A stretch of DNA of 64,000 nt from Ornithinimicrobium sp. F0845 (lineage in GTDB: Bacteria > Actinomycetota > Actinomycetes > Actinomycetales > Dermatophilaceae). A program made the translations under genes and the position numbers. Positions 15,732 to 52,030 of the stretch are shown piece after piece; within the stretch, counting starts at the first letter, position 1; each line of letters opens with the position of its first letter. A model generated the notes under the pieces. That model ran no database searches, had not been told where the DNA came from, and saw only the letters and a list, made by a program, of their open reading frames with translations. The stretch spans positions 62,001 through 126,000 of the forward strand of contig NZ_JALKAL010000010.1 of the NCBI RefSeq assembly GCF_023015765.1, written 5' to 3'.

Positions 15732-15780
15732 CCCGTGTGTGGCTTTTGGTCCCCTCTGGGGGCTTTTTCCCACACACGGG
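15732..15780. repeat. Interrupted palindrome, family P, copy 1
   Basis: CCCGTGTGTGG at 15732-15742 pairs perfectly with CCACACACGGG at 15770-15780. An inner CCCC/GGGG stem lies between. Read on the minus strand it matches the pattern GTGGGA..GAG..CCCC..TGG..CCCAC shared with five other copies. It lies 72 bp beyond the stop of the first AbiEi/DUF559 gene and also 77 bp beyond the PH-like gene's stop. The surrounding gap 15655-15851 holds nothing else I recognise. Confidence 0.8.
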
Positions 15781-15851
15781 AACAAAGTCCACACGCGAGA
15801 GCGTGAGATAGGCCCAGGCGCACGGGCGCCTGGAGATGCACGCCGAGTTCC

Positions 15852-16982
15852 TCACGTCGACGTCACCGATGAGGAGGCAGCCTTCCCTGCAGGTTGAGTG
15901 CGTGCACTCCACTGCTCGAGGATGTCGCAAGCCGGGCTGCACGGTGTCGGTACCCCGTCCCAGCCCCGGTGGGCCATCGTGGAGGCTACGTCCAACGCGA
16001 CCTGGCACGGGTCCTCCGCCGCGTCCCAGGTCACCCGCAGGGTCATCTCGCCCCTCGCAGCCGCTTGCCGGTCCCGGCGCCGGTCCTCGTGGAAGCGGTC
16101 GCCACCGTGCCAGGCCACACCGTCACCCTCGATGCGGATGCCGAGTGCCCGGTTGCGCAGGTCGCAGCGCCGGACTCGGCGTCCACCAGCGCTGACGCCA
16201 TCGTCCGGTGCACCTCCAGGGGCGGAGCGGTTCTCCGTCGCATCGGGGGGCCTGACGTCCGTAGAAGTGCTGGGTGTGCGGCTGTCGTCGTCGAGCTGGT
16301 CCTGCACGTCGAGCGGGTCCTGCAACCGGAAGCCGGGCAGGCCGTGTGCCCTGATCACGTGTCGGAGTATCCGGGACTCCAGTGAACTCTCGACGCCCTC
16401 CGCTGCGTCGGCGCAGGCAGCGCGCAGTCTGTTCGACATCGGGTGCCCATGCTGTGCGTCCAACAATTCGAGCAGTGCGGAGGGCTCGAGCAGATTCTTC
16501 TGGGCTGCACGACCGAGGAGGGCCGCGGTGTCGTCGAGCGTGAACCCTGCTTGGGCGGTCAGATCGAGCACGGTCTGCCGGATGCTGGTCACCGGAAGCC
16601 TCTTTCGTCGGACGACCTCGACTCGCCGTCTCCGCATGACGCGAAAGCCTGGTTGACGCTTCACCGTGCGCTCCGCCGGGACTGACACGGTGAGCATGGC
16701 GGGCTGTGACTTCTCAAGCCCCCAGACGTAGGCCGCAGCGTAGTGCGAGAGTGCTGCACCCTTGCCGGCGTACAGGACTGCGGCCCAGGCACGGGTCCAC
16801 CAGTCGACCTTCGCATTGTGCGTCGCGTAAACGCCGGGGTGGATGTTCTGCCACTTCTTCGTCCGCACCTGCAACGCAACTTCCTTGGCGGTCATGCCGG
16901 CGGCCAGCGCCTGCTTTCTGCTGATCGCCCAGTGTTGCTGGCCCGCGAGACTCCGCACGGTTTGCTCGGTCTGGTGATCCAT
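15852..16982 (-). CDS. AbiEi-like winged-helix protein with DUF559 (Vsr-fold) C-terminus, paralogue 1
   Basis: 376 aa. Residues 5-55 look like an AbiEi-type winged helix (ISRKQALAAGMTAKEVALQVRTKKW), followed by the AbiEi body with IHPGVYATH, ALSHYAAAYVWGL and the SIRQTVLDLTA segment near 145. A variable linker (about 225-270) leads to a DUF559/very-short-patch-repair-like end: DLRNRALGIRIEGDGVAWHG, then FHEDRRRDRQAAARGE and LRVTWDA. The Asp, Glu and Asp spacing of the nuclease fold is retained, so DNA cleavage is possible but unproven. A paralogue lies at 50655-51725. No toxin partner (AbiEii) is adjacent. Palindromic repeats lie beyond both ends. Confidence 0.75.
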   Translation of the reverse strand: MDHQTEQTVRSLAGQQHWAISRKQALAAGMTAKEVALQVRTKKWQNIHPGVYATHNAKVDWWTRAWAAVLYAGKGAALSHYAAAYVWGLEKSQPAMLTVSVPAERTVKRQPGFRVMRRRRVEVVRRKRLPVTSIRQTVLDLTAQAGFTLDDTAALLGRAAQKNLLEPSALLELLDAQHGHPMSNRLRAACADAAEGVESSLESRILRHVIRAHGLPGFRLQDPLDVQDQLDDDSRTPSTSTDVRPPDATENRSAPGGAPDDGVSAGGRRVRRCDLRNRALGIRIEGDGVAWHGGDRFHEDRRRDRQAAARGEMTLRVTWDAAEDPCQVALDVASTMAHRGWDGVPTPCSPACDILEQWSARTQPAGKAASSSVTST

Positions 16983-17143
16983 CGCCGCAGCCTGCCGGAC
17001 GACCCAGGTCGGCCGCAGGAACTATCCACAGCCCCGGCCTGTGCGTGCGGGCGACGAACGCGGGCACGAGCGGGGCGCGGCACGGGCGGTGGGTGGCGCG
17101 GGCGGTGGGGTGGCACGGCCCGGCGGGGTGTGTGGAAAATGTG

Positions 17144-17193
17144 CCCCTGTGTGGGATCTGACCCCGCTGGAGGGGTCAATAGCCACACACGGG
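17144..17193. repeat. Interrupted palindrome, family P, copy 2
   Basis: CCCCTGTGTGG at 17144-17154 pairs with CCACACACGGG at 17183-17193 (one mismatch). The inner arms ACCCC (17161-17165) and GGGGT (17172-17176) pair perfectly. The right arm word CCACACACGGGAACG is repeated again at 17202, and a shorter form CGGGAACGGATGCCACAC occurs at 17190 and 17223. It lies 162 bp before the AbiEi/DUF559 gene and 69 bp after the mutase gene. The gap 16983-17261 shows no other feature. Confidence 0.8.
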
Positions 17194-17261
17194 AACGGAT
17201 GCCACACACGGGAACGTCACTACGGGAACGGATGCCACACGGGAGAGCCCGTGGCGGCAGG

Positions 17262-18995
17262 TCAGGCCCGGGTGAGCTCCTCCATGGTGGCCCGGACAGC
17301 GGCCAGGCGGCGGGCAGCCTCGGCACGGGCGTTCGCGAGAGCGCGTGCAGCCTCGGCACGGGCGTTCGCCAGAGCACGGGCAGCCTCCGCGGGCTCCGCC
17401 AGACCCACACCCTCCACGGGCACGATCGCCTCGAGGTAGACCTTGAGCTTGGGCTCGGTGCCGCTCGGTCGCACGATCACGCGGGTGTCGTCGGCCAGGA
17501 GGTACCGCAGGCCCTCGGTAGGCGGCAGGCCGCCGGCGCCCAGGGCGAGGTCCTCGACGCTGGTCACGGCCGAGCCACCCAGCTCGGTCGGCGGCGCGGC
17601 GCGGAGCCGGTCCATGACCGGGGCGATGAGCGCGAGGTCGGTGACCCGCACCGAGAACGCGTCGGTCTGGTGGACGCCGTGGGCCAGGGCCAGGTCGTCC
17701 AGCACGTCCGTCAGCCGACGACCGTCAGCCTTGAGTGTCGCCGCGAGCTCGGCGACCAGCAGGGCCGCGGTGATCCCGTCCTTGTCCGGCACGTTGGCGG
17801 GGTCGACGCAGTAGCCGAGCGCCTCCTCATAACCGAACCGCAGACCCTCGACGCGGCCGATCCACTTGAAGCCGGTGAGCGTCTCCTGCGCGGGCAGTCC
17901 CGCGGCACGAGCCATCGCGGCGAGCAACCGCGAGGAGACGATGGACCGCGCCAGGACGGTGTGCTCGCCCTCAGGGTCCACGCCGCGGTTGATGATGTGC
18001 TGCCCCAGCAGGGCGCCGACCTCGTCGCCGCGCAGCATGCGCCACCCCTGGCCGTCCTCGACGGCGACAGCGCACCGGTCGGCGTCCGGGTCGTTGGCGA
18101 TCACGAGATCGGGCCGGACCTTCTCGGCCTGCGCCAGAGCGGCATCGATCGCGCCCGGCTCCTCGGGGTTGGGGAAGGAGACCGTCGGGAACTCGGGGTC
18201 CGGAGCGGACTGGGTGAGCACGGCCTGCGGCTCCGGGAACCCGGCCGCGGCGAAGGCACGCAGCACGGTGTCTGAGCCCACCCCGTGCAGCGCGGTGTGG
18301 ACCACCGAGACGTCACGGGGGCTGTCGGGAGCCACGACGGAGGCGGCGGTCGCGACATACTCATCGAGCAGCCGGTCGTCCAGGGTCTCCCAGCCGGTCC
18401 TGGCCAGAGGCACGTCCGCGGCGCGGGTCACGGCGGCGATGTGCGCGGCGATGTCGCTGTCGACCGGGGGCACGATCTGCGAGCCGTCGCCGAGATAGAC
18501 CTTGTAACCGTTGTCCTGCGGCGGGTTGTGGCTGGCCGTCACCATCACGCCCGCGTCGGCGCCCAGGTGCCCGATCGCGAAGGCGAGCACGGGCGTCGGC
18601 AGCGGGCGGGGCAGCACCAGCGCCCGCCCGCCGGCCGCGGTCACCACGGCCGCGGTGTCCCGGGCGAACACGTCGGAGTTGTAGCGCGCGTCGAAGCCGA
18701 TCACCACGGTCGGCTCGGGATCGACCCGCTCCCTCAAGTATGTCGTGAGGCCGGCTGCCGCACGGATCACCACCACCCGGTTCATCCGGTTGGGCCCGGC
18801 ACCCAGTGCCCCGCGCAGGCCGGCCGTGCCGAACTCCAGGAACCCGGAGAACCGGTCCGCCAGGTCGGCGAGCGCCTCCTCGTCGGAGGAGCGGGCCGCC
18901 TCCAGGACGCCGGACAGCTCGGCGCGGGTGTCCGGGTCGGGGTCGTCGGCGAGCCACGCCTCGGCGAGGGAGACGAGGTCGGTGGGTGACGGCAT
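17262..18995 (-). CDS. Phosphoglucomutase/phosphomannomutase-type phosphosugar mutase
   Basis: 577 aa from the ATG complementary to 18993-18995, two bases after the PNP stop. Alpha-D-phosphohexomutase features: FGTAGLRG near 45, phosphoserine loop TASHNPPQDNGYK near 154, metal loop NDPDADRCAV near 301, sugar loop EEALGY, and phosphate loop VRPSGTEPKLKVY near the end. Next to PNP it probably acts as phosphopentomutase in nucleoside salvage (M. tuberculosis pmmB/deoD context). The last 45 residues are an unusual Ala/Arg/Glu tail with ARALANARAEA repeated, coded by a 42-bp direct repeat at about 17311-17395. Confidence 0.9.
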   Translation of the reverse strand: MPSPTDLVSLAEAWLADDPDPDTRAELSGVLEAARSSDEEALADLADRFSGFLEFGTAGLRGALGAGPNRMNRVVVIRAAAGLTTYLRERVDPEPTVVIGFDARYNSDVFARDTAAVVTAAGGRALVLPRPLPTPVLAFAIGHLGADAGVMVTASHNPPQDNGYKVYLGDGSQIVPPVDSDIAAHIAAVTRAADVPLARTGWETLDDRLLDEYVATAASVVAPDSPRDVSVVHTALHGVGSDTVLRAFAAAGFPEPQAVLTQSAPDPEFPTVSFPNPEEPGAIDAALAQAEKVRPDLVIANDPDADRCAVAVEDGQGWRMLRGDEVGALLGQHIINRGVDPEGEHTVLARSIVSSRLLAAMARAAGLPAQETLTGFKWIGRVEGLRFGYEEALGYCVDPANVPDKDGITAALLVAELAATLKADGRRLTDVLDDLALAHGVHQTDAFSVRVTDLALIAPVMDRLRAAPPTELGGSAVTSVEDLALGAGGLPPTEGLRYLLADDTRVIVRPSGTEPKLKVYLEAIVPVEGVGLAEPAEAARALANARAEAARALANARAEAARRLAAVRATMEELTRA

Positions 18996-18997
18996 AC

Positions 18998-19804
18998 TCA
19001 GATCCTCGCCACGATCTGGGAGAGCAGCTCGCCGCAGCGCTGGGCCGCGGCCTGACCTGCCTGCATGACCTCCTCGTGGGACAGCGCGGTCTCGCTGATG
19101 CCGGCCGCGGCGTTGGTGACCAGGGACACGCCCAGGACGTCCATCCCGGCCTCGCGCGCCGCGATCGCCTCCAGCGTCGTGGACATCCCGACGAGGTCGC
19201 CACCCAGGATCTTGGCCATCTGGACCTCGGCCGGTGTCTCGTAGTGCGGCCCGCGGAACTGGACGTAGACACCCTCGTCGAGGCTCGGGTCGACCTCGCG
19301 TGCCAGGTCGCGCAGCCGCGGGGTGTAGAGGTCGGTGAGGTCGACGAAGTTGGCGCCCTCGACGGGCGACTCGCCCGTCAGGTTGATGTGGTCCCGGATG
19401 AGCACGGGCGTGCCGGGAGCCCAGGCCGGGTTGAGGCCGCCGCAGCCGTTGGTGAGCACGATCGTCCGGCAACCCGCCGCGGCCGCCGTGCGCACGGCGT
19501 GCACGACCGCGCGGACGCCGCGGCCCTCGTAGAAGTGGGTGCGGGTGCCGAAGACCAGGGCGCGCTTGCGGCTGCCGGACACGGCGACCGAGCGCATGGT
19601 GCCGGTGTGGCCGGCGACGGCTGCGCCGGTGAAGCCCGGTACCGCTGTGTTGTCGACGGTGGCGACCGTCTCACCGATGAGATCGGCGGTCGGTCCCCAC
19701 CCGGATCCGAGGACCAGGGCGATGTCGTGGGTGGCGGCGCCGGTGCGCTCGGCGATGACGGTGGCCGCGGCGCGGGCCACCTCTGCAGGGGTTTCGGTGG
19801 TCAC
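18998..19804 (-). CDS. Purine nucleoside phosphorylase
   Basis: 268 aa from GTG at 19802-19804. A start further upstream (to 19855) is possible but would overlap the divergent LpdA gene. It splits inosine or guanosine with phosphate into base and ribose-1-phosphate, supplying the adjacent mutase. Motifs: LVLGSGWG, VPGF, RTHFYEG, the LTNGCGGLNP loop, GPHYETPAEV and the VGMSTTLEA segment, all of the trimeric PNP class. Commonly named deoD or punA in actinobacteria. Confidence 0.92.
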   Translation of the reverse strand: MTTETPAEVARAAATVIAERTGAATHDIALVLGSGWGPTADLIGETVATVDNTAVPGFTGAAVAGHTGTMRSVAVSGSRKRALVFGTRTHFYEGRGVRAVVHAVRTAAAAGCRTIVLTNGCGGLNPAWAPGTPVLIRDHINLTGESPVEGANFVDLTDLYTPRLRDLAREVDPSLDEGVYVQFRGPHYETPAEVQMAKILGGDLVGMSTTLEAIAAREAGMDVLGVSLVTNAAAGISETALSHEEVMQAGQAAAQRCGELLSQIVARI

Positions 19805-19827
19805 CGGGGCAGCGTACCGATGGTTGG

Positions 19828-21294
19828 ATGGGTCCCGTGAGTGGAACGCAGACATCAGTGGTCATCGTCGGAGGCGGCCCGGGCGGATATGAGGCTGCCC
19901 TGCCCGCTGCGCACCTGGGAGCCAGGGTCACCGTGGTCGAGCGCGAGGGTGTGGGGGGCGCCGCCGTGCTCACCGACTGCGTTCCCAGCAAGGCGCTGAT
20001 CGCGACCGCCGACTTCATGGACCGCTTCAGCGCGGCCGAGCGGATCGGTGTCCACTTCGACGACGCGCCGGGCGACCAGGGGGTGACCGCGCACCTGCCC
20101 GAGGTCAACGAGCGCATCATGGGCCTGGCCGGGGCGCAGAGCCAGGACATCCGGGGCAAGCTGGTCGCCGCGGGCGTCGAGGTCGTCCAGGGCGCCGGCC
20201 GCATCGTCCGCCCCGGACTGGTCGAGGTGGCGACCGGCGTGGGGAGCGTCGAGTCGGGTGAGGAGCCGGCGCCGTCCGGCGCCGAGCGGGCCGGCCAGAC
20301 CAGGAGCCTCGAGGCCGACATGATCCTGGTCGCCACCGGGGCCCGCCCCCGGGTGCTGGACACGGCGGTGCCCGACGGCGAGCGCATCCTGACCTGGCAG
20401 CAGATCTATGACCTGACCGAACTGCCCGAGCACCTGATCGTCATCGGGTCCGGTGTGACCGGTGCCGAGCTCGCCCACGCCTATCTCGGTCTCGGGTGCC
20501 GCGTCACGCTGGTCTCCTCCCGGGACCGTGTCCTGCCCGGCGAGGACCAAGACGCCGCGACCGTGCTGGAGGAGGTCTTCCGCGGCCGCGGCATGGAGGT
20601 GCTCAACCGGTCCCGCGCAGGTGGGGTCGTCCGCGACGGCGACGAGGTGGTGGTGACCCTCGTGGACGGGCGCGAGGTCCGGGGCTCCCACGCGCTGCTG
20701 GCCGTCGGTTCCATCCCGAACACCCAGGACCTGGGGCTGGAGGAGTCGGGCGTCGTGCTCTCGGAGTCGGGCCACGTCGTGGTCGACCGGGTCTCGCGGA
20801 CCTCGGTGCCCGGGATCTATGCCGCAGGGGACTGCACGGGCGTCCTGCCCCTGGCTTCCGTGGCGGCGATGCAGGGTCGGATCGCGGTCGCGCACGCCCT
20901 GGGCGACGCGGTCGCGCCGCTCAACCTCGGGCGGGTCAGCTCCAACATCTTCACCGACCCCGAGATCGCCACCGTCGGTGTCTCCCAGGCCGATGTGGAC
21001 TCCGGCAAGGTCGACGCACGCTCGGTGATGCTGCCGCTGACCGGCAACCCGCGCGCCAAGATGCAGAACACCAAGCACGGGTTCGTCAAGATCTTCGCGC
21101 GCAAGGGCAGCGACACGATCCTGGGCGGCGTCGTCGTGGCCCCCCGGGCCAGCGAGCTGATCTTCCCGATCACGCTGGCCGTGGCCAACCGGCTCAACGT
21201 CGACCAGTTCGCCTCGACGTTCACCGTGTATCCCTCGATGTCCGGCTCCATCGCCGAGGCGGCCCGGCAGCTGCACAGCACGGAGACCGACTGA
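19828..21294 (+). CDS. lpdA: NAD(P)H-quinone dehydrogenase, LpdA type (flavoprotein disulfide reductase family)
   Basis: 488 aa (GTG 19837 is an alternative start). FAD motif VVIVGGGPGGYEAAL and a second NAD motif IVIGSGVTGAELAHAYLGLG near 205. The FAD motif with GIYAAGDCTG and the C-terminal dimerisation domain with FTVYPSMSGSIAEAARQL complete the fold. At the usual redox CXXXXC site it reads GGAAVLTDCVPSK, so the first Cys is missing, as I recall for mycobacterial LpdA, which reduces quinones rather than lipoamide. Divergent from the PNP gene. Confidence 0.88.
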   Translation: MGPVSGTQTSVVIVGGGPGGYEAALPAAHLGARVTVVEREGVGGAAVLTDCVPSKALIATADFMDRFSAAERIGVHFDDAPGDQGVTAHLPEVNERIMGLAGAQSQDIRGKLVAAGVEVVQGAGRIVRPGLVEVATGVGSVESGEEPAPSGAERAGQTRSLEADMILVATGARPRVLDTAVPDGERILTWQQIYDLTELPEHLIVIGSGVTGAELAHAYLGLGCRVTLVSSRDRVLPGEDQDAATVLEEVFRGRGMEVLNRSRAGGVVRDGDEVVVTLVDGREVRGSHALLAVGSIPNTQDLGLEESGVVLSESGHVVVDRVSRTSVPGIYAAGDCTGVLPLASVAAMQGRIAVAHALGDAVAPLNLGRVSSNIFTDPEIATVGVSQADVDSGKVDARSVMLPLTGNPRAKMQNTKHGFVKIFARKGSDTILGGVVVAPRASELIFPITLAVANRLNVDQFASTFTVYPSMSGSIAEAARQLHSTETD

Positions 21295-21320
21295 TCGCGG
21301 CGTCTGGTCTCCCCCCGGCG

Positions 21321-21345
21321 CTCACCGGGACTGGTGCCCGGTGAG
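21321..21345. terminator. Hairpin after lpdA
   Basis: CTCACCGGG (21321-21329) and CCCGGTGAG (21337-21345) form a perfect 9-bp stem with a 7-nt loop, 27 bases after the lpdA stop. It lies between converging lpdA and nhaC genes, so it may serve both. Confidence 0.5.
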
Positions 21346-21417
21346 GCGTGAATGCGGGGTTGGTGCTCGGCTAGGCCGAATGCCGCGCAGTGAGCAGTGT
21401 GACTGGTGTGGCAACGG

Positions 21418-23028
21418 CTAGGCCTGGACGCGTTCTGCCTGCTCCTCGGTCGGGATCTCCTCCTCCAGCGGCGTGAGCAGGGTCTTGGCCGCGAGGGCTC
21501 CCAGCGCCAGGAAGCCGAGCGTGGCCAGCAGGCCGACCAACCCGTTGATTGTCAGGGCGAACACGACATAACCCAGCAGGGCGATGGCTGCGCTGACGAG
21601 GGCATAGGGCAGCTGGGTGGTCACGTGCGTCATGACGTTGGCCCCGGATCCGGTGCTGGACAGGATGGTCGTGTCGCTGATGGGGGAGCAGTGGTCGCCG
21701 AAGACAGCGCCAGCGAGCACCGCGCCGAAGGCCGGGAGCAGGAGCTCGGCGCCGCCGTCGACGCTGTTCATGATCTGCCCTGCGATGGGCAGCAGCAGAC
21801 CGAACGAGCCCCACGAGGTGCCGGTGGAGAAGGCCATCGCCCCGGCCAGGCAGAACATCAGGGGGATCAGCCAGGCGGGGGGCACCGCGGCGTGGTTGAC
21901 CAGGTCGCCGAGGTACTGGCCGGTGCCGAGCTGGCCGATCAGGTCGCCGAGCATCCACGCGAGCAGCAGGATCGACACCGCGGGCATCATCGACTTGATG
22001 CCTTCCCAGAAGCCGAGCCCGAGGGTTGAGGGGCTGAACTTCGGGTTGGCCGTGGTGTAGCGGAGGTAGTAGTAGAGGGCCGCGGCCAGACCGAGTCCGC
22101 CGCCCCAGAGGAGCGACAGGCTGACGTCGGTGTTGGCGAAGATCGAGAGCACGTCCCAGCTGCCACCACCCTGGTAGCCGGTCCAGATGATGCCCCCGAG
22201 GACGCCGACGACCAGGAGGACGAACGGGATGATCAGGGCGCGCTTGGAGCCGGGGTGGTGCACGGGCAGGTCCTCGGCCAGCTCACCGGGGATGATCTCG
22301 TCGGGGTTGAAGGTCCTGCCGGCGGTGATAGCTCGCCGCTCCTCGGTGCGCATCGGGCCGATCTCGACGTGCAGCATGACGGTGACCCAGACCATCAGGA
22401 CGGCCACGATGGCGTAGTAGTTCATGGCGGCGGCGCCCAGGAACGCCTCCACATCGCTGACCACCAGCGCGGAGCTGGCGACGATGGGCGCCATGATGCC
22501 GATGATGCTGGCGCCCCAGCTGGAGAACGGTGCCAGCACGGCGACCGGCGCCGAGGTGGAGTCGACGACGTAGGCGAGCTTGGCCCGGGACACGTTGTGC
22601 TTGTCGGTCACCGGACGGGCCACCTGCCCGACGGCCAGGGCGTTGAAGTAGTCGTCGATGAAGATGACGATGCCGAGGACGGCCGGGAGGATCTTGGCGC
22701 CGCGCCGCGTGTGGATGCGCTCGACCGCCCAGTCCGAGAAGGCTCGCGTGCCCCCGGACATCATGATCAGGGCCGCGATGATCCCCAGGAGCAGGGTGAA
22801 GACCAGGATGAAGACGTAGTAGGTGTTCACCGCGCCCTCGTCCCAGAAGATCACGCGGAAGGCGTTCCACACCAGGCTGAGGGTCTCCAGCGGATTGAAG
22901 CCGGCCACCAGCAGCGCGCTGGCCACCACGCCGGAGCCCAGGCTGAGCAGGACCCGTTTGGTGATGAGCACCAGCGCGATCGCGATGACCGGCGGCAGGA
23001 CCGTCAGGATGGGGTAGTCGTCGACCAT
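21418..23028 (-). CDS. NhaC-family Na+/H+ (or amino-acid/proton) antiporter
   Basis: 536 aa from the ATG at 23026-23028, which has GGAGGG upstream on its strand. It has about 12 hydrophobic segments. Family features include GTRAFSDWAVERIHTRRGAK, FIDDYFNALAVGQVARPVTDKH, DSTSAPVAVLAPFSSWG and GTSWGSFGLLLPIAG, and a tail with SPISDTTILSSTG. It imports protons in exchange for sodium, or exchanges small organic acids in some members. It stands alone between lpdA (convergent) and the biotin carboxylase gene; a start at 23064 would add an unlikely basic leader. Confidence 0.88.
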   Translation of the reverse strand: MVDDYPILTVLPPVIAIALVLITKRVLLSLGSGVVASALLVAGFNPLETLSLVWNAFRVIFWDEGAVNTYYVFILVFTLLLGIIAALIMMSGGTRAFSDWAVERIHTRRGAKILPAVLGIVIFIDDYFNALAVGQVARPVTDKHNVSRAKLAYVVDSTSAPVAVLAPFSSWGASIIGIMAPIVASSALVVSDVEAFLGAAAMNYYAIVAVLMVWVTVMLHVEIGPMRTEERRAITAGRTFNPDEIIPGELAEDLPVHHPGSKRALIIPFVLLVVGVLGGIIWTGYQGGGSWDVLSIFANTDVSLSLLWGGGLGLAAALYYYLRYTTANPKFSPSTLGLGFWEGIKSMMPAVSILLLAWMLGDLIGQLGTGQYLGDLVNHAAVPPAWLIPLMFCLAGAMAFSTGTSWGSFGLLLPIAGQIMNSVDGGAELLLPAFGAVLAGAVFGDHCSPISDTTILSSTGSGANVMTHVTTQLPYALVSAAIALLGYVVFALTINGLVGLLATLGFLALGALAAKTLLTPLEEEIPTEEQAERVQA

Positions 23029-27516: not shown

Positions 27517-27546
27517 ACGTAAATGTACATAGATGTACATTTACGT
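27517..27546. promoter_or_regulatory. Perfect inverted-repeat operator before the vapB-like gene
   Basis: ACGTAAATGTACAT (27517-27530), two bases AG, then its exact reverse complement (27533-27546), ending one base before the antitoxin ATG. Each arm contains the self-complementary word ATGTACAT. The block is AT-rich in a GC-rich genome. This is the expected place and form of a site bound by the antitoxin or toxin-antitoxin complex for autorepression (inference). Confidence 0.75.
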
Positions 27547-38587: not shown

Positions 38588-38660
38588 GGAGCCATGCGAC
38601 CGGATGGGCGCGCTGCGACGTCATGGCACTCGCCTGGCGCACATCTGGTCGCACGGCTCC
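38588..38660. repeat. Long imperfect hairpin between convergent genes
   Basis: The 19-nt arms 38588-38606 and 38642-38660 are complementary except for two positions; the loop is 35 nt. The arms contain CCATGCGACC and GGTCGCACGG, resembling the GGCCATGCGAC unit at 1.4-1.6 kb. It sits just after the + gene's stop and just before the end of the - gene, so it may stop transcription from both. Confidence 0.5.
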
Positions 38661-43728: not shown

Positions 43729-43734
43729 CTCCAC

Positions 43735-44973: not shown

Positions 44974-44975
44974 GT

Positions 44976-45055
44976 TGGCCGGAGGTCCAGGAGTCCATCC
45001 GGTGCCAGCAGGTGAGGAGATCGCCGCGATAGACGGTCTGCCCAATGCGCAGGTC
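44976..45055 (-). pseudogene. Fragment of a second DUF885 gene
   Basis: On the minus strand an open run reads LRIGQTVYRGDLLTCWHRMDSWTSG. It aligns with residues IGQTVYRGELLNRWRRMASWTSG of the intact DUF885 gene at 38.7-40.4 kb; the DNA is likewise similar (shared GCCGCGATAGAC block at 45023 and near 39160). Both flanks are lost. It is a decayed remnant squeezed between the MFS gene and the Uma2 pseudogene, evidence for a second DUF885 copy once present here. Confidence 0.7.
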
Positions 45056-45070
45056 GACGATGTGCGCCTG

Positions 45071-45625
45071 CTATTCCAGGAGCAAGTCGGCCGGGGTGAA
45101 GTCCAGCGGGAACGGGGCAGTCACCTTGACGCGTTCGGTGCCTCGCCGGACCTGCACCTCGCGGTAGGCGCCGTCCTCGAGTTCCAGGACCTGCACCGAC
45201 GGCTCGAGGGGGTCGATGAGCCACTAGGAGGCGACCCCCGCAGCGGCGAAGCGATCACGCTTGAGCAGGAGGTCGATGCGCCGGGTGCTCGGCGAGAGGA
45301 CCTCCACCGCGAGCAGTGGCGCGGTCGGCAGCTCCTTGTCCGTGAGGTCCTTGGCGCGGGTGACGAGGAGGTCGGGCTGGAGCACGGTGTCCTCTGACAG
45401 CGCGACGTCGAAGGGCGCGGTCTTGACCACCAGTCCCTCGGGTCTGTGCGTGCGCAGCAGCACGGTCAGCTCGACAACAGCCGCTTGGTGCCACCGGCCA
45501 GGTCCGGGCGTCACGATGATCGACCCGTCCAACAGTTCATAGCGCTCCGACCCCTCCAGGGGGCGCAGCGCGTCAAGGTCCGCCCGTGTCAACGGACCTG
45601 CGTGCGAGGTCGACACCACGCTCAC
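45071..45625 (-). pseudogene. Uma2-family (PD-(D/E)XK) endonuclease interrupted by TAG
   Basis: From GTG at 45623-45625 the frame reads SERYELLDGSIIVTPGPGRWHQ, VLQPDLLVTRAKDL and LAVEVLSPSTRRIDLLLKRDRFAAAGVAS, which is the full Uma2 nuclease core including PDLL and EVLSP. It meets a TAG at 45224-45226 where relatives have Tyr (ASYWLIDP). After it the same frame continues WLIDPLEPSVQVLELEDG to a TAG at 45071-45073, giving the normal family length of about 185 codons. One base change (TAC to TAG) explains the break. The catalytic core lies before the stop, so a 133-aa truncated product could still be made. Confidence 0.75.
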
Positions 45626-45803
45626 TACTGTGCCCCCAATCGTCTGGTGGCGCGACTATTGCACCGCGGGTCGGAGTGCGTGTGGTCGTTGTCAAGTGCG
45701 CAGGGTGAGCGCCCGTCCCGATTTGCGTGGTCGGGGCGGGCGGTGGCCCAGCGATGGGTATCGGCGGCCGCGCGGGGAGCGAGGGGGAGAACGGACCTCA
45801 GGA
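45626..45803. other. Gap without recognised feature
   Basis: 178 bp between the starts of the Uma2 pseudogene and the end of the aminotransferase. It is GC-rich with no repeat, promoter consensus or reading frame that I would defend. Confidence 0.5.
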
Positions 45804-47114
45804 TCAGGCGGGCAGGACCTCGTGCACGGCAGCGGCGACGAGGTCGGCAAGCCGATCCACCTGCTTCGGTGTGATGACCAGCGGCGGCCCGAGGACGAGC
45901 AGGTCACCGTCGGTGCCGTTGGCGCAGCCGGTGCCGGGATAGATCAGGACGCCTGCGGCCTTGCCGGCGGCGAGGATCCGCTCGGTCACCCGCTCGGCCC
46001 GCGGGAAGGGAGCCTTGGTGCCGCGGTCTGCGACCAGCTCGACCGCCTGAAGCAGGCCCAGTCCCCGCACGTCGCCGACGTGCTGATGGTCACCCAGCCG
46101 CGCGGAGAGCGCCGTGCCCAGCTGCACACCGCGCTCGGCGGAGGCCGCGACCAGGTCGTGCTCGGTGAGGTAGTCCAGCACCGCTAGGCCGGCAGCAGCT
46201 CCGACGTGGTGGTGGGAGTAGGTGAACCCGTGCGTCAGCGAGGCCTCGCCGATCGTGTCGTGCACCTGACCGCTGGCCACGGCCAGCCCCAGCGGCCAGT
46301 AGCCCGAGGCGGCGCCCTTGGCCGCGACCAGCAGGTCCGGCACGAGCCCGAAGTGCTCGCTGGCGAACCACGCCCCGGTGCGGCCGAAGCCGGTCATCAC
46401 CTCGTCCGCCACGACGAGCAGGCCGTGGTGGCGGCATACTGCCTGCATCGCCGGCCAGTAGTCCTCCGGCGGCACGCACGCACCCAGCGCGGCACCCGAC
46501 ACCGGCTCGGCGATGAAGGCCGCCACCTGCTGCGGACCGATCTGCTCGATCAGCGCGTCGAGCCGATCCGCGTGCCACTGCCCGCAGCCGTGCGGGTGGG
46601 CGGGGGCGGCGCAGCGGTACTCGTAGGGCGTGCCGGTGTGGGCCGCCTGCCCGAGCCAGGGCAGGTAGGGGGCCCGCAGTCCGTCGCGGGCCCCGACGTC
46701 CAGCGCCCCGCGGGTGTTGCCGTGGTAGGAACCGGACCGCCCGATCACCACGTGCCGGTCCTCGCCGCGAGCCAGGTGGTAGGCGCGCGCCATCTTCAGC
46801 GCCGTCTCCACCGCCTCGCTGCCACCCGAGACCGGATAGACCCGGGCGTCGGTGACGGGCAGTATGCCGGCCAGCCGGTCGGCATACTGCTCCAGGGTGT
46901 CGGTGGTGAAGGCGCTGCCGTGGGCGTAGGCGAGGCGCGCGGACTGGGCGGCGATCGCCTCGCCGACCTCGGTGACGCCGTGGCCGATGCCGACCACGAT
47001 CGCGCCGCCGGAGCCGTCGAGGTAGGTGCGGCCGTCGGCGTCGACGATCTCGCAACCCTGCCCGCGGACCGCGACCGGCAGGTCACGGCCGCGGGCGAAG
47101 ACGTGTCCGCCCAC
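45804..47114 (-). CDS. Class-III aminotransferase
   Basis: 436 aa PLP enzyme. Features: DGRTYLDGSGGAIVVGIGHG, VYPVSGGSEAVETALKMARAYH, GRSGSYHGNTRGAL, FIAEPVSGAALGACVPPEDYWPAM, VVADEVMTGFGRTGAWFA and the PLP Lys in LVAAKGAASGYWPLG near 265. Substrate would be an omega-amino acid or a diamine; the exact choice cannot be read. It is last in a leftward group of three with gabT-like and semialdehyde dehydrogenase genes; 10 bp separate it from gabT. Confidence 0.85.
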   Translation of the reverse strand: MGGHVFARGRDLPVAVRGQGCEIVDADGRTYLDGSGGAIVVGIGHGVTEVGEAIAAQSARLAYAHGSAFTTDTLEQYADRLAGILPVTDARVYPVSGGSEAVETALKMARAYHLARGEDRHVVIGRSGSYHGNTRGALDVGARDGLRAPYLPWLGQAAHTGTPYEYRCAAPAHPHGCGQWHADRLDALIEQIGPQQVAAFIAEPVSGAALGACVPPEDYWPAMQAVCRHHGLLVVADEVMTGFGRTGAWFASEHFGLVPDLLVAAKGAASGYWPLGLAVASGQVHDTIGEASLTHGFTYSHHHVGAAAGLAVLDYLTEHDLVAASAERGVQLGTALSARLGDHQHVGDVRGLGLLQAVELVADRGTKAPFPRAERVTERILAAGKAAGVLIYPGTGCANGTDGDLLVLGPPLVITPKQVDRLADLVAAAVHEVLPA

Positions 47115-47124
47115 GCGCCGTCGC

Positions 47125-48477
47125 TCAGGCCTCGAGCGCGGCGAGCGCCTCGCCCAGGACGCGCAGTGCGGTGCTCGCCTCGTCGGCGGTGAAGACCAGC
47201 GGCGGGGACATGCGAATGGTCCGGACCCCGCAGTCGAGCACCAGCAGACCGCGGCGGAAGGCCTGGTTCTGGGCCTCGGCGGCGGTCTCCGCGTCGCGGA
47301 ACTCCACGCCGATCATCAGCCCGACCCCGCGCACGTCGGTGATCACCTCAGGATGCTTGGCCTGCAGCTCGCGCAGCCCGGTCAGCAGCTGCTCACCGAC
47401 GGTGGTGGCGTTGGCCAGCAGGCCCTCCTCCTGGATCGTGCGCAGCGTGGCCAACCCTGCGGCGCAGGGTATCGGGCTGCCGCCGTAGGTGGAGCCGTGG
47501 GCGCCCGCGCCCCACGTCTCCATCAGGTCGGCGCGGGCCGCGAACGCGCCGAGCGGGAGCCCGGAGGCCAGACCCTTGGCGCTGATCAGGATGTCGGGCT
47601 GGACGTCGGCCAGCTCGATGGCCCACATCTTGCCGGTGCGGCCCATGCCGGACTGCACCTCGTCGGCGACGAGGAGGATGCCGTGCTCGTCGCAGAGCGC
47701 GCGCAGCCGCTGCACCCAGGACGCCGGCGGGATGATGTAGCCGCCCTCGCCCTGCACCGGCTCCAGGAAGATCGCGGCGACCTCACTCGGCGCGACCTCG
47801 GTCTCGAACAGCCGCTCCAGCTCGGTGAACGTGGCCTCCTCGTCGTGGCTGCGGTGACCGGACTCGTCGATCTCGGCGAAGGCGTAGGGCACGTGGTGCA
47901 CGCCGGGCAGCAGCGGGCCGAAGCCCTTGTGGTACTTCGCCTTCGACGCGGTCAGGCTGACCGCGCCGTAGGTCCGGCCGTGGAAGGCACCGAAGAAGCT
48001 GATCAGGTGCTGGCGACCGGTGGCGTATCGGGCCAGCTTGATCGCGCCCTCGACCGCCTCGGCGCCGGAGTTGGTGAGGAACACGCGGGTCGGGCCCTCG
48101 ATCGGCAGGGTCTGCGCCAGCGCCTCGCACATCTCCGAGTAGATCGGCAGGTAGAAGTCGCTGGCGGAGTAGTGCAGCAGCTTCTCCGCCTGCTCCTTGA
48201 CCGCCGCAACCACGGCCGGGTGGGTGTGCCCGGTGGAGTTCACCGCGATGCCGGCGTTGAGGTCGAGGAACAGGTTGCCGTCGACGTCCTCCATCGTCGA
48301 CCCGTGGGCCCGCTGGGGGACCAGGGGGTAGGCCCGGGGCAGGGACGGGCTGGTCACGGCGCCGTCGCGGTCCAGCACCTTCTGCCCCTCCGGACCGGGC
48401 AGGGCCGTGCGGATGTCCGGCACGGGACGGCTGGTGTCGATGCCCTGCTGGTCGGTCTCGGTGATCGTGGCGCTCAT
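47125..48477 (-). CDS. 4-aminobutyrate aminotransferase-like (GabT)
   Basis: 450 aa. DGNLFLDLNAGIAVNSTGHTHP, VFLTNSGAEAVEGAIKLARYATGRQ, FFGAFHGRTYGAVSLTASK, FLEPVQGEGGYIIPPASWVQRL, LVADEVQSGMGRTGKMWAIE and PLP Lys in ISAKGLASGLPLGAF near 290. It transfers the amino group of GABA or a similar omega-amino acid to 2-oxoglutarate. The semialdehyde formed would be oxidised by the enzyme encoded upstream. Ten bases separate it from the second aminotransferase. Confidence 0.85.
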   Translation of the reverse strand: MSATITETDQQGIDTSRPVPDIRTALPGPEGQKVLDRDGAVTSPSLPRAYPLVPQRAHGSTMEDVDGNLFLDLNAGIAVNSTGHTHPAVVAAVKEQAEKLLHYSASDFYLPIYSEMCEALAQTLPIEGPTRVFLTNSGAEAVEGAIKLARYATGRQHLISFFGAFHGRTYGAVSLTASKAKYHKGFGPLLPGVHHVPYAFAEIDESGHRSHDEEATFTELERLFETEVAPSEVAAIFLEPVQGEGGYIIPPASWVQRLRALCDEHGILLVADEVQSGMGRTGKMWAIELADVQPDILISAKGLASGLPLGAFAARADLMETWGAGAHGSTYGGSPIPCAAGLATLRTIQEEGLLANATTVGEQLLTGLRELQAKHPEVITDVRGVGLMIGVEFRDAETAAEAQNQAFRRGLLVLDCGVRTIRMSPPLVFTADEASTALRVLGEALAALEA

Positions 48478-48522
48478 CTGCTGAGGGGTCCTCTCGTTCT
48501 GCTCACTGCATTGGTATGTCGG

Positions 48523-48568
48523 GTGGTCACGGTGTGTCGGGTGTGGTCACGGTGTGTGGGGTGGTCAC
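48523..48568. repeat. Short tandem repeat after the aldehyde dehydrogenase gene
   Basis: GTGGTCACGGTGTGT begins at 48523 and 48543 and the word GTGGTCAC again at 48561. On the minus strand this is just after the dehydrogenase stop and before the gabT start. Not seen elsewhere in the window. Confidence 0.6.
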
Positions 48569-48575
48569 CTGGCCG

Positions 48576-50141
48576 TCAGGAGACCACGGTGCGGGACTGC
48601 TCGCGCATGAACTGCTGCAGGTAGTAGAGACCGCCGCCGGCGTTGCCGTAGGTGCCCGAGCCCTTCCAACCACCGAACGGCTGGACGCCCGGCCACGCAC
48701 CGGTCGTGGCCCCGGCAGGGCGGTTGACGTAGACGACGCCGGCCTCGATGCCGTCGAAGAACTGCTGGATCTCCGCCTCGTCGGTGGAGAAGAAGCCGGC
48801 GGTCAGGCCAAGGTCGGAGTCGTTGGCCAGCTCCAGGCCCTGCTCGAGGGAGTCGACCGGCGCGATCGCCAGGAAGGGAAGGAACAGCTCGTCGCGGAAC
48901 AGCTGGTCATCGACCGGCAGGTCGGTGACGATCGTGGGGGAGACGTAGTAGCCCTGCGTGCCGTCGGGGGTCGCCCCGATGACCTCGCCGCCGAGGACGA
49001 CGGTGCCCGCCTCCTTGGCGTGGGCGACCGCCTTCTCGTAGCGGCGCACCGACTCCTCCTCGATCACCGGGCCGAGGAAGGTGTCCCGCTTGGTCGGGTC
49101 GTCCAGGACCAGCGACTGGGCGCGCTCGACGATCTTGCCCAGCAGCTCGTCATACACCTCCCTCTCGACATAGACGCGGGAGTTCGCCGAGCACTTCTGG
49201 CCCGAGAAGCTGAAGGCGGAGCGGGCGATCCCCTGGGCCGCGAGGTCCAGGTCGGCCTTGGCCGTGACGATCGTGGGGTTCTTGCCGCCCATCTCGCAGA
49301 TGACCGGCTTGGGGTAGGCGCTGGCGAAGTCGCGGTAGATCGACATGCCGACCGCGTAGGAGCCGGTGAACGTGATGCCGTCGACATCCGGGTTGGACAC
49401 GATGGCCTGGCCGACCTCGTCGCCGCCGGGGAGCATGTGGAAGGCGTCGGCGGGCACACCGGCCTCGCGCAGGCAGTCGGTGAGCAGGGCGGATGAGAAG
49501 GTGCCCTGGGGCGCCGGCTTGAGGACGACCGTGTTGCCCGCGACGAGGGCGCCGCCGGCGGGACCTGCGGCCAGGGCCATCGGGTAGTTGAAGGGCACGA
49601 TGACGCCCCACACGCCGTAGGGGCGCATGACGCTGCGGGTGTTCTCCTTCTCGAGGAGCTTGTCCATGTCCTTGGCAAAGCCGTCGTTCTGCTCCATCTG
49701 GGTGCAGTAGTAGCGGATCAGGTCCGCTGCCTCCTCCACGTCACCCAGCGCCTCGAGGCGGTTCTTGCCGACCTCCATGGTCATCACCGCGGCGAACTCG
49801 GCGCACCGGTCGCTGATCATCTCGGCGGCCGCACGGAGGATGCGGACTCGCTCCTGCCAGTCGGTGTTGCCCCAGCTGCTGCGGCCCGCCTTGGCCGCGG
49901 CCACGGCGTCGGCGATGTCGTCGGTGGTGGCCGACGCGACCGTGCACAGGGTCACCGAGGTGTCGACCGGGCTGTGCACCTCGAAGGTCTGCCCGCCGGG
50001 GCGCTCCTCGCCGTTGACGAAGGGGGTGATGTGCCGGCCCAACCAGCCGCGGGCAGTCTCCAGCCCCTCCTCGTACCAGGTGTGCAGGTCCTCGTTGTCG
50101 GCGGACAGGGTCGCGTACGTGACCCGGAAGCGGGACGCCAT
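48576..50141 (-). CDS. Aldehyde dehydrogenase, glutamate/succinate-semialdehyde type
   Basis: 521 aa from ATG at 50139-50141, which has GGAGG seven bases upstream; a further ATG at 50147 sits directly on that site. Domains: GVWGVIVPFNYPMALAAGPAGGALVAGNTVVLKP, GITFTGSYAVGMSIY, Glu in VICEMGGKNPTIV and catalytic Cys in FSFSGQKCSANSRVYV near 290. The latter motif is typical of P5C/glutamate-semialdehyde dehydrogenases (RocA/PruA) but SSADH is also possible. First gene of the omega-amino-acid group. Confidence 0.82.
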   Translation of the reverse strand: MASRFRVTYATLSADNEDLHTWYEEGLETARGWLGRHITPFVNGEERPGGQTFEVHSPVDTSVTLCTVASATTDDIADAVAAAKAGRSSWGNTDWQERVRILRAAAEMISDRCAEFAAVMTMEVGKNRLEALGDVEEAADLIRYYCTQMEQNDGFAKDMDKLLEKENTRSVMRPYGVWGVIVPFNYPMALAAGPAGGALVAGNTVVLKPAPQGTFSSALLTDCLREAGVPADAFHMLPGGDEVGQAIVSNPDVDGITFTGSYAVGMSIYRDFASAYPKPVICEMGGKNPTIVTAKADLDLAAQGIARSAFSFSGQKCSANSRVYVEREVYDELLGKIVERAQSLVLDDPTKRDTFLGPVIEEESVRRYEKAVAHAKEAGTVVLGGEVIGATPDGTQGYYVSPTIVTDLPVDDQLFRDELFLPFLAIAPVDSLEQGLELANDSDLGLTAGFFSTDEAEIQQFFDGIEAGVVYVNRPAGATTGAWPGVQPFGGWKGSGTYGNAGGGLYYLQQFMREQSRTVVS

Positions 50142-50414
50142 TGTCATTCCTCCGTGAGTGCGGGTGGGTGTGGACGGCTCTGCTTCGGACAGTACCTCAG
50201 CACCGGTCCGCAACGCACGGCAGATCCTGCCGAACCGCCCTAATGGTGATGTTTTTCCTGTCGAGGCGCCGGTTTGACGATGATCTTCCTGTGGATCGCT
50301 CGCGCGACGCGACGTTCCTCACGGCCCGACGCGCGTGCGGGGCACGCCCGAGCCGTCGTGCGGGCACGCCCGAACCGGCGGGCGGGGCCCATCTGGCTAC
50401 CGTCGAGCCCCTGG

Positions 50415-50457
50415 GTGCTGTGGGGTTTGGGCCATCAGGGTGCTCGAATCCCACAGT
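50415..50457. repeat. Interrupted palindrome, family P, copy 5
   Basis: Left arm GTGCTGTGGGG (50415-50425), right arm TCCCACAGTGC (50449-50459). As RNA of the plus strand all 11 positions can pair (three G-U pairs). Inner sequence GCCATCAGGGTGCTCG matches copy 6. Confidence 0.75.
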
Positions 50458-50574
50458 GCAGTGCGTGCCCGGCAGGATGTCGGCGCGGGCCCGCACGCTG
50501 CCCTGAACTCCGTCGCAGCCTCCTCCTCAGCCCGCGTGCGGGCGGGGCGCATCTCCCGACCGTCAAGCCCTTGG

Positions 50575-50619
50575 GTGCTGTGGGGTTTTGGCCATCAGAG
50601 TGCTCGAATCCCACAGTGC
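50575..50619. repeat. Interrupted palindrome, family P, copy 6
   Basis: Same arms as copy 5: GTGCTGTGGGG (50575-50585) and TCCCACAGTGC (50609-50619), with a slightly different inner part (GGCCATCAGAGTGCTCG). It is about 35 bp beyond the AbiEi/DUF559 stop. Confidence 0.75.
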
Positions 50620-50654
50620 CTGCCGACAGTGCGGACGGCGCGGTCGCCTCCTCC

Positions 50655-51725
50655 TCAGCTGGCCGCCCGTCCTGTCTCGGCAGCCCACCGATCGACGACA
50701 TCGCACGACGGCCCGCATGCGGTCGGCACCCCGGTCCAGCCCCGGTGTGTCATCGTCAGGGCGAGGTCGAGGGCCACCTCGCACGGTTGTTCTGCCGCGG
50801 CCCAGGTGATCCTGAGAGTGAGATCGCCAGCTGCGGCGGCCTTGAGGTCCCGGCGTCGGTCCTCGTGGAAGGTGTCGCGGTGCCACTCCAGGCCGTCTCC
50901 CTCGATCCTGATGCCGTGGGCAGCGTTGCGCAGATCGCTGCGCTCCACCCGAGGTCGTGAGCCTGTGATGTTCCTCGAGATGACTCCAACGTCCGTGGTG
51001 TGCGCGCCCGAGTTTGGTGCCGCCCCGTGGGTCGCGGCGACCCCTTCGTCGTCGTGAGGCACCTGCAGCGCGAAACCTGGGAGGCCATGGGCACGGATGA
51101 CGGTGCGGAGGATTCTCGACTCGAGGGAGCTCTCGACGCCGTCGGCCGCATCTGCGCAGGCACGTCGCAGCACGTCGGCCAGCGGGTGGTTCCAATAGGC
51201 ATCGAGCGCATCCAGCAACTGGTCCGGCAGGAGCAACTGCCGCTGCGCGGCTCGCCCCAGAAGTGCTGCTGTCTCGTCAAGGGTGAAACCCGGCTCTGCG
51301 GTGAGGTCGAGAACCGTCTGTCGGACGCTGGTGACTGGAAAGTTCTTACGCTTGACCACCTCGATGGCTCGTCGTCGCGTCACCCGGGTGCCCGTGGGTC
51401 GGACGATCGTGCGCTCTTCAGGAATCGCGACGTGCAGCATGCTGGGCGCCTTGGGCTCCAGACCCCACAGGTAGGCCGCGGCACCGAGCGACAGTACTGC
51501 TCCGGTCCCGGCACGGAGAAGCGCCGCCCACGCACGAGCATTCCAGTTGGCACTGCCCGAGTGAGTCAGGTAGACGCCAGGGTGGATCCTCTTCCAGCGT
51601 CCGCTGCGGACGGCGTGCGCGATCTGCTTGGGTGACAACTGGCACTCCAGCGCCTGCGCTCTGCTGATGACACCGTGCTGTGCCTTGGCCACGCGCTTCA
51701 CTGCCTGCACGATCGTCGGGTCCAT
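50655..51725 (-). CDS. AbiEi-like winged-helix protein with DUF559 (Vsr-fold) C-terminus, paralogue 2
   Basis: 356 aa from ATG at 51723-51725, which aligns with the paralogue start; an upstream ATG at 51740 adds five residues. The order is as in paralogue 1: winged helix (ISRAQALECQLSPKQIAHAVRSGRW), IHPGVYLTHSG, ALSLGAAAYLWGLEPKAPSM-type body, SVRQTVLDLTAEPGFTLDETAALLGRAAQ, variable linker, then DLRNAAHGIRIEGDGLEWH and FHEDRRRDLKAAAAGDLTLRITWAA. Outside the linker the two proteins are about 60% alike. No AbiEii toxin neighbour. Repeats crowd both sides. Possible DNA-binding nuclease; activity unknown. Confidence 0.75.
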   Translation of the reverse strand: MDPTIVQAVKRVAKAQHGVISRAQALECQLSPKQIAHAVRSGRWKRIHPGVYLTHSGSANWNARAWAALLRAGTGAVLSLGAAAYLWGLEPKAPSMLHVAIPEERTIVRPTGTRVTRRRAIEVVKRKNFPVTSVRQTVLDLTAEPGFTLDETAALLGRAAQRQLLLPDQLLDALDAYWNHPLADVLRRACADAADGVESSLESRILRTVIRAHGLPGFALQVPHDDEGVAATHGAAPNSGAHTTDVGVISRNITGSRPRVERSDLRNAAHGIRIEGDGLEWHRDTFHEDRRRDLKAAAAGDLTLRITWAAAEQPCEVALDLALTMTHRGWTGVPTACGPSCDVVDRWAAETGRAAS

Positions 51726-51790
51726 CGGGCCAGCGTGCACGATTTAGAGCAGGCACCGCCCGAACTGTCCACAGGCCCGTCCCTGCCGAA

Positions 51791-51880
51791 GCTGGACCGT
51801 GAAGTCCGGGGCTGGACCGTGAAGGTGTTTGACCGTCCGAAGTTGGACCGTGAAGTCCGGAGTTGGACCGTCAAGTCCGA
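51791..51880. repeat. Four 20-bp units of GCTGGACCGTGAAGTCCGG type
   Basis: GCTGGACCGTGAAG at 51791 and 51811, and GTTGGACCGTGAAG or -CAAG at 51842 and 51862, are 20 bp apart within each pair. They lie about 70-140 bp upstream of the second AbiEi/DUF559 gene. Confidence 0.75.
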
Positions 51881-51920
51881 GACGGACAGTGGCGTCGCCT
51901 GCCGGCCGGTGCCCCACCGT

Positions 51921-51967
51921 CACTGCGTGGGAATCGTTCCACCAGGGGGACTCGATCCCACGCAATG
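51921..51967. repeat. Interrupted palindrome, family P, copy 3
   Basis: CACTGCGTGGGA (51921-51932) and TCCCACGCAATG (51956-51967) pair with one mismatch; ATCG/CGAT words just inside extend the stem. Inner block TTCCACCAGGGGGAC. Confidence 0.8.
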
Positions 51968-51983
51968 CCAGCTGCGCGGGTGT

Positions 51984-52030
51984 CACTGCGTGGGAATCGT
52001 TCCATCTGGGGGACTCAATCCCACGCAATG
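51984..52030. repeat. Interrupted palindrome, family P, copy 4
   Basis: CACTGCGTGGGA (51984-51995) and TCCCACGCAATG (52019-52030) repeat copy 3 exactly in the arms, with two or three changes inside (CCATCTGGGGGACTCA). Distance from copy 3 is 63 bp. Confidence 0.8.

What the first reader, a model, noticed from the sequence alone, without database searches (positions are those of the whole stretch)
15732..52030. Six-copy palindrome family found only next to the two AbiEi/DUF559 genes
Seen: interrupted palindromes of about 45-50 bp at 15732-15780, 17144-17193, 51921-51967, 51984-52030, 50415-50459 and 50575-50619. Read in one orientation all share GTGGGA, GAG, CCCC, TGG and CCCAC in order. The outer arms change together (CTGTGGG/CCCACAG, GCGTGGG/CCCACGC, TGTGTGG/CCACACA), so pairing is kept while sequence differs. 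All six lie within about 310 bp of one of the two AbiEi/DUF559 genes, on both sides of each. Established analogy: REP palindromes cluster near RAYT nucleases in enterobacteria. Inference: the DUF559 Vsr-fold proteins might act on, or have spread with, these palindromes. Alternative: all six also lie downstream of some gene's 3' end (pgm, accE, DUF559), so they could be ordinary 3'-end elements and the link to DUF559 coincidental.
Basis: partly seen in the sequence, partly recalled or inferred. Interest (0 to 1): 0.8.

Follow-up and report, generated by a model that had tools for sequence, protein, structure and literature searches.

The report
Nuclease-like genes with private palindromes
In actinobacteria, many genes for a DNA-binding protein fused to a nuclease-like domain sit beside palindromic DNA repeats of their own kind, and copies of these repeats are scattered elsewhere in the genome, which suggests an undescribed sort of mobile DNA.

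Summary
The six palindromes are real but form three families, not one: A flanks gene 1, B lies upstream and C downstream of gene 2. Their link to AbiEi/DUF559-type genes is real and wider: up- and downstream flanks of such genes match, with a hairpin on at least one side, in 38 of 58 named loci (16 named genera plus MAGs) against 1 of 114 control window pairs, and in 24 of 36 genus loci against 0 of 82 control genes. Dispersed copies prefer convergent gene gaps, differ between species, and can occur without the gene: family X is scattered here, while an X-flanked gene is in two related species. No Y1 (RAYT-type) transposase was found in 31 of 31 genomes. The protein is an AbiEi module fused to a PD-(D/E)XK-like domain. 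Published AbiEi binds two 23-bp inverted repeats, the layout seen here. Best reading: a REP/RAYT-like but non-homologous system: the AbiEi part binds its palindrome, the nuclease part spreads it. Association and dispersal are shown; binding and mobilisation are inferred. Our searches found no prior report.

The parts
15852..16982 (-). g1, AbiEi-type N-terminus + DUF559-like C-terminus, 376 aa
   Evidence: ORF; AbiEi_4 18 bits, below cut-off 25; 60% identical to g2
50655..51740 (-). g2, same architecture, 361 aa
   Evidence: ORF; AbiEi_4 40.9 bits, cut-off 25
15716..15796 (.). family A palindrome downstream of g1 (core 15732-15780, outer arms also pair)
17128..17209 (.). family A palindrome upstream of g1 (core 17144-17193)
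17183..17250 (.). tandem half-units CCACACACGGGAACGGATG next to the upstream A palindrome
   Evidence: family D1
51919..51981 (.). family B unit 1 upstream of g2 (palindrome 51921-51967)
   Evidence: D3; score 22.0 (reversed control 9.5) to the locus of a g2-like gene in G006
51982..52044 (.). family B unit 2 upstream of g2 (palindrome 51984-52030)
   Evidence: D3
50378..50459 (.). family C unit 1 downstream of g2 (palindrome 50415-50459)
   Evidence: D2, 90% identical to unit 2
50538..50619 (.). family C unit 2 downstream of g2 (palindrome 50575-50619)
   Evidence: D2
51786..51895 (.). tandem ~20-nt repeats (TGGACCGTGAAGTCCG) upstream of g2
   Evidence: D1
17022..17031 (.). CTATCCACAG motif upstream of g1 (DnaA-box-like or promoter-like)
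   Evidence: read; motif class enriched upstream of family genes
51765..51774 (.). CTGTCCACAG motif upstream of g2
   Evidence: read
1497..1562 (.). family X palindrome, solitary, convergent intergenic gap
   Evidence: gene with X flanks in G005 and G024
38588..38660 (.). family X palindrome, solitary, convergent intergenic gap; found at the same site in 1 of 28 relatives examined

Best explanation
Each gene of this family encodes a DNA-binding AbiEi module fused to a PD-(D/E)XK (Vsr/DUF559-like) nuclease-like domain, and most have their own 40-80 bp interrupted palindrome. SHOWN: gene-specific palindromes on one or both sides of most family genes examined in this order; copies dispersed through the genome, enriched in convergent gene gaps; presence or absence differing between species at the same site; palindromes where no cognate gene is seen. 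INFERRED: the AbiEi winged helix binds the two ~23-nt half-sites of its palindrome, as true AbiEi binds its operator, so the upstream copy may also serve autoregulation; the fused domain nicks or cuts at the bound (perhaps extruded) palindrome; and repair or strand transfer copies the palindrome elsewhere, with insertions tolerated in 3' gaps. The gene with its palindromes would be the master unit, solitary palindromes the non-autonomous units. It works like REP/RAYT with an unrelated enzyme.
Confidence: 0.6

Rival explanations
1. The palindromes are operators. The AbiEi part represses its own gene through the upstream copy and controls a regulon through the dispersed ones; the nuclease-like part does something else (for example defence).
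For: AbiEi and Rv2827c autoregulate through inverted repeats of the same layout. Where an upstream hairpin was found (28 of 58), it ends a median 129 nt before the matched gene region.
Against: Downstream hairpins are as common as upstream ones (36 vs 28 of 58). Dispersed copies prefer convergent gaps and are rare in divergent ones. Copies differ between species at the same site and, read by eye, decay in place.
Confidence: 0.18
2. The palindromes are mobilised by something else (host replication or repair, another transposase), and the genes merely carry copies as passengers.
For: REP-like CGTC repeats without a dedicated transposase are described (PMC3733652, passages). Tandem half-units near the genes suggest slippage. 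Only Y1 transposases were searched for.
Against: Pairing is gene-specific in most loci. An orphan family led to genes of this family with the same palindromes in two other species.
Confidence: 0.12
3. A selfish or defensive nuclease whose palindromes act as self-marks or decoys that restrain it.
For: PADLOC AbiEi models match 47 of 51 members and a methyl-directed REase model 23 of 51. A DUF559 protein causes an SOS response in Caulobacter when a cytosine methylase is lost (PMC12907096, passages).
Against: No modification gene or AbiEii partner among the five Pfam-scanned neighbours of g1 and g2. Does not explain the context bias or the spread.
Confidence: 0.06
4. Ordinary 3'-end elements such as terminators, with no tie to the gene.
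For: Copies are enriched in convergent gaps.
Against: Upstream copies; gene-specific sequence shared by both sides of one gene; control genes lack it.
Confidence: 0.04

Closest known systems
REP sequences with RAYT (TnpA_REP), REPtrons
   Same: Gene-specific short palindromes flank a nuclease gene and are dispersed outside genes, often at 3' ends; orphan families; several families per genome
   Different: No Y1 HUH transposase found in 31 genomes; no GTAG tag enrichment (3 of 62 palindromes); about 40-80 bp rather than 20-40 bp (PMC3733652, abstract in listing); enzyme is AbiEi + PD-(D/E)XK-like. In the passages seen, that paper lists no Actinobacteria among its GTAG or CGTC phyla, but cites untagged REP-like families in M. 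tuberculosis
AbiE type IV toxin-antitoxin, AbiEi antitoxin and operator
   Different: No AbiEii/DUF1814 partner among the scanned neighbours of g1 and g2; extra nuclease-like domain; palindromes on both sides and dispersed
Vsr / DUF559 / PvuRts1I-type PD-(D/E)XK endonucleases
   Same: Conserved E...D...E-x2-G-x2-H residues (A6 invariants); DUF559 matches in 7 of 51 members
   Different: Fused to a whole AbiEi module; tied to palindromes; no methylase among the scanned neighbours
CGTC-tagged REPs, described as lacking a dedicated transposase
   Same: Dispersed palindromes without RAYT
   Different: Here a candidate cognate enzyme exists; CGTC near an end in 11 of 62, about 5 expected under uniform bases, so inconclusive in GC-rich DNA

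Membership tests
REP/RAYT | Y1 (HUH) transposase gene in the genome | tested here: not met
   PF01797: 0 of 31 genomes at E<=0.001; rings in 5 of 14 control genomes
REP/RAYT | GTAG tetranucleotide next to the palindrome | tested here: not met
   3 of 62 palindromes, about 5 by chance
REP/RAYT | Dispersed extragenic palindromes, biased to gene 3' ends | tested here: met
   8 of 18 copies convergent, 1 divergent, 2 inside a called gene; 16, 2 and 4 of 36
REP/RAYT | Nuclease gene flanked by its own palindromes | tested here: met
   38 of 58 vs 1 of 114, 24 of 36 vs 0 of 82; the nuclease is of another superfamily
REP/RAYT | Protein cleaves its single-stranded palindrome | not testable with these tools
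   needs biochemistry
AbiE toxin-antitoxin | AbiEi fold | tested here: met
AbiE toxin-antitoxin | Adjacent AbiEii (DUF1814) toxin gene | tested here: not met
   Five neighbours of g1 and g2: weak bPH_6, PGM, Aldedh, ACC_epsilon, Carboxyl_trans; other loci not scanned
AbiE toxin-antitoxin | Two inverted repeats upstream bound by AbiEi | tested here: inconclusive
   Palindromes of that layout are upstream; binding untested
PD-(D/E)XK, DUF559/Vsr-like | Family profile match | tested here: inconclusive
   DUF559 in 7 of 51, none in g1 or g2; weak PvuRts1I profile hit E 0.012
PD-(D/E)XK, DUF559/Vsr-like | Catalytic-type residues conserved | tested here: met
   E186, D217, E228, G231, H234, D243 invariant in A6; like residues in g1 and g2; the role of these residues is recalled, not from a call
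Classical MITE or transposon | Target-site duplication | tested here: inconclusive
   No close enough empty site
Intrinsic terminator | Hairpin followed by T run | not tested
   scan not run

The most novel reading that the evidence does not exclude
A new class of mobile system in which a transcription-factor-type antitoxin (AbiEi) captured a nuclease domain and now spreads its own operator: regulator and operator form one selfish unit, seeding look-alike operators through actinobacterial genomes and re-inventing the REP/RAYT strategy with unrelated parts.
Probability: 0.4. Interest if true: 0.95.

Novelty: categorically new. Interest (0 to 1): 0.85.

Why it matters
REP biology has rested on one enzyme class (recalled), and a survey of palindromic repeats left families without a transposase unexplained (PMC3733652, passages). 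Here is a candidate second enzyme class, in a phylum not named among that survey's tagged families in the passages seen, with dozens of gene/palindrome pairs that make recognition rules directly testable. It would also suggest a function for a widespread protein family (matches in 102 of 296 sampled genomes of the phylum) annotated by profiles only as AbiEi or DUF559. By logic rather than descent one could equally call it a new variant of the REP/RAYT kind.

Tried and rejected
One six-copy family: rejected. RAYT-driven repeats: not supported in this genus. Known RNA element: no Rfam match in the window at gathering scores. Family X as belonging to an own-genome gene: none of the 8 gene loci has X-like sequence (best 14.0); the nearest protein, D, is 53% identical to the X gene but has its own palindromes. 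Y palindromes of L040 as a pair around a family gene: rejected, no family match; the region reads like an ABC transporter. Exact insertion junction of the g1 unit: not readable. Covariation as the main proof of structure: weak. A two-sequence structure model of g1/g2: useless (pLDDT 37.8). Relatives by g2 alone in genome contigs: none. Foldseek against the PDB: tool off. Weak or absent fold matches for the nuclease-like domain are not evidence of a new fold.

Caveats on controls: same-locus control windows are often coding, so (flanks of called genes) is the fairer control. A flank match alone can be a non-palindromic repeat (for example L191, L259, L263, L271); the stricter counts are. The genus set and the named set share some loci, and orthologous copies are counted separately, so neither is independent. 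The background for one search is this genome, the copies are from eight others. Gene calls for context are a home-made GC-frame heuristic. Dropped before counting: L028, L184 and L195, L253, L255, L272, L273; G015 had no locus, and G017 and G023 had no usable locus. An earlier count said 10 of 18 convergent; one search shows 8.

Full report
What is in the window. The window is G000:C2:62001-126000 of a 4.2 Mb, 59-contig genome. Two genes, g1 and g2 (60% identical), have an AbiEi-type N-terminus (g2 above, g1 below the Pfam cut-off) and a C-terminus with a DUF559-like D...IEGDG..H stretch. All six palindromes exist and fold better than shuffles. They form three families: A on both sides of g1, B upstream of g2, C downstream of g2. 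A is not clearly like B or C; B and C share a faint core.

The same genome tells a wider story. It has eight genes of this family. Seven have palindromes nearby: besides g1 and g2, genes D (C12), E (C1) and F (C34) have quite different palindromes on both sides, and so have G (C45:52147) and H (C10). Up and down flanks match at score 17 or more for 5 of 8 (g1, D, E, G, H); g2, F and the eighth gene do not reach it, though the F palindromes share a 17-nt arm. The eighth shows no palindrome.

Genus and named relatives. All 31 genus genomes carry family matches, 3 to 17 each. Of 37 loci scored one lacked a downstream flank; in 25 of the other 36 the up and down flanks match, against 2 of 82 control genes of this genome and 13 of 420 mismatched pairs of flanks; hairpins of 12.5 or more lie upstream in 72% (controls 9%) and downstream in 61% (10%). 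Of 60 named loci two were too short; 48 of 58 match versus 7 of 114 control window pairs; hairpins upstream 28 of 58 and downstream 36 of 58, controls 0 and 3 of 114; at least one side 43 of 58, both sides 21 of 58. Because a flank match can also be a non-palindromic repeat, I recounted: match plus a hairpin on a side, 38 of 58 versus 1 of 114, and 24 of 36 versus 0 of 82; shared segment itself hairpin-forming, 33 of 58 versus 1 of 114, and 19 of 36 versus 0 of 82. Examples with nearly the same palindrome on both sides: L183, L182, L162. The 58 loci come from 16 named genera plus MAGs. In the wider phylum 102 of 296 genomes have a match, but of 29 loci (4 cut by contig ends) only 10 of 25 pass, controls 0 of 25, and 6 of 25 with a hairpin. 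The pairing is thus strongest in this order and its neighbours.

Palindrome and protein change together. Cross-side similarity between different genes reaches 17 in 31 of 103 pairs with protein identity of 60% or more and in 36 of 1550 below. The rank correlation over all pairs is weak (0.06), and the few scores above 100 are probably homologous neighbouring sequence. The g2-like gene of G006 has a B-like palindrome (22.0, reversed control 9.5); the related gene of G002 only a doubtful A-like one (12.5 against 8.0).

Dispersed copies. In about 500 kb searched, families A, E, F, G and H each have one or two copies away from their gene; over all 19 queries the reversed palindromes, a control with equal self-pairing, gave none at 20 or more and one at 17 or more; B, C and D showed no further copy at 20 or more. 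Family X has 21 half-site matches genome-wide, 1 for the backwards pattern. The family GTTCTGGACATAGG, found beside the genes of L017 and L018, has 50 half-sites in 8 of 31 genomes and none backwards; a protein at 75% identity or more to that of L017 was seen in only two of those eight, the next at 52-58%, so in six the family may be orphaned. Thirty-six copies share a 52-bp core: conservation is high within it and near background outside. Of 18 copies in this genome 8 lie between convergent genes, 6 in tandem gaps, 1 between divergent genes, 2 inside a called gene, 1 unclear; of the 36 copies 16 convergent, 14 tandem, 2 divergent, 4 inside, against 35 convergent and 39 divergent of 167 background gaps in this genome. 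Gene calls are heuristic.

Gain, loss and orphans. In 29 of 29 relatives whose pgm locus was fetched, the neighbouring 196-aa gene is there, no g1/g2-like gene is found by tblastn, and A-like sequence scores no higher than reversed controls (13.0 and 13.0; own locus 82). The X copy at 38588 is matched at the same site in G024 only, of 28 relatives examined. X has no gene here among the eight, but a BLAST listing placed X copies next to family genes in G005 and G024; reading those loci showed X copies on both sides of the gene in G005, and upstream plus one cut by the contig end downstream in G024. One convergent gap, read by eye, holds the 52-bp element in G027 and G013, apparent remnants in G004 and G028, other palindromes in G002 and G020, the X palindrome in this genome (1497-1562), and none in G012 and G016, where the genes are closer and a deletion is possible.

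Other recurrent anatomy. A TTATCCACA/TTGTCCACA-type motif lies within about 250 nt upstream in 23 of 58 genes and in 0 of 231 control windows. It equals a DnaA box (recalled) but may be a promoter. Short tandem repeats of 13-24 nt border g1, g2, D, E and F.

Is it known? Searches for DUF559+palindrom (2 papers, not relevant by title), DUF559+transposon (0), DUF559 alone (14), AbiEi+palindromic+REP (13), MTES_1575 (4), RAYT+Actinobacteria+endonuclease (12), three of four of repetitive extragenic palindromic/RAYT/nuclease/Actinobacteria (17), REP-associated tyrosine transposase+Vsr (0), AbiEi with inverted repeats/operator/autoregulation (75, 8 listed), extragenic palindromic+Actinobacteria+REP elements (2) listed no report of such a link. 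The library holds open-licence PMC papers only, and listings were judged by title and start of abstract; passages were read in four papers. A report elsewhere is not excluded, and untagged REP-like repeats in M. tuberculosis are cited in PMC3733652.

Verdict. Association, gene-specificity, dispersal, convergent-gap bias and lineage-dependent presence are shown. That the protein binds the palindrome is likely (about 0.85). That its nuclease-like domain spreads it is the best current reading, not a result (about 0.6).

Noticed in passing
window 17183-17250, 51786-51895; L007:6492-6596; L008:6703-6867; L009:5070-5153: Short tandem repeats (13-24 nt units, different in each case) beside each of five family genes; in g1 the unit is one arm of the palindrome.
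   Followed up: partly
window 17022-17031 and 51765-51774; upstream of family genes in named loci: TTATCCACA-like motif upstream in 23 of 58 genes, 0 of 231 control windows; DnaA box or promoter element.
   Followed up: partly
window 1419-1600; L310-L334: One convergent intergenic gap carries different palindrome families, remnants or none in different species.
   Followed up: yes
L040:6193-6239, L040:7873-7958, L055:357-443; L050:5318-5389, L059:18205-18282, L041:9941-10009: Two more dispersed palindrome families (Y, Z) in this genome with no cognate gene found.
   Followed up: partly
window 27517-27546: 30-nt palindrome ACGTAAATGTACATAGATGTACATTTACGT, unlike the others, possibly a regulator site.
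   Followed up: no
window 52405-52464: 20-nt tandem repeat inside the ACC epsilon gene (52181-52498), coding for alanine-rich repeats.
   Followed up: no
G000:C45:135992-136666 (L066): Eighth family gene with no palindrome seen; CGATCCCG-bearing short repeats upstream.
   Followed up: partly
L128, L130, L133, L141, L156, L063: Arms of several palindromes contain the same word twice, about 20 nt apart, so the palindrome is nested.
   Followed up: no
L191, L259, L263, L271: Up and down flanks share long repeats without a strong hairpin (or tandem arrays); what these are is unexplained.
   Followed up: no
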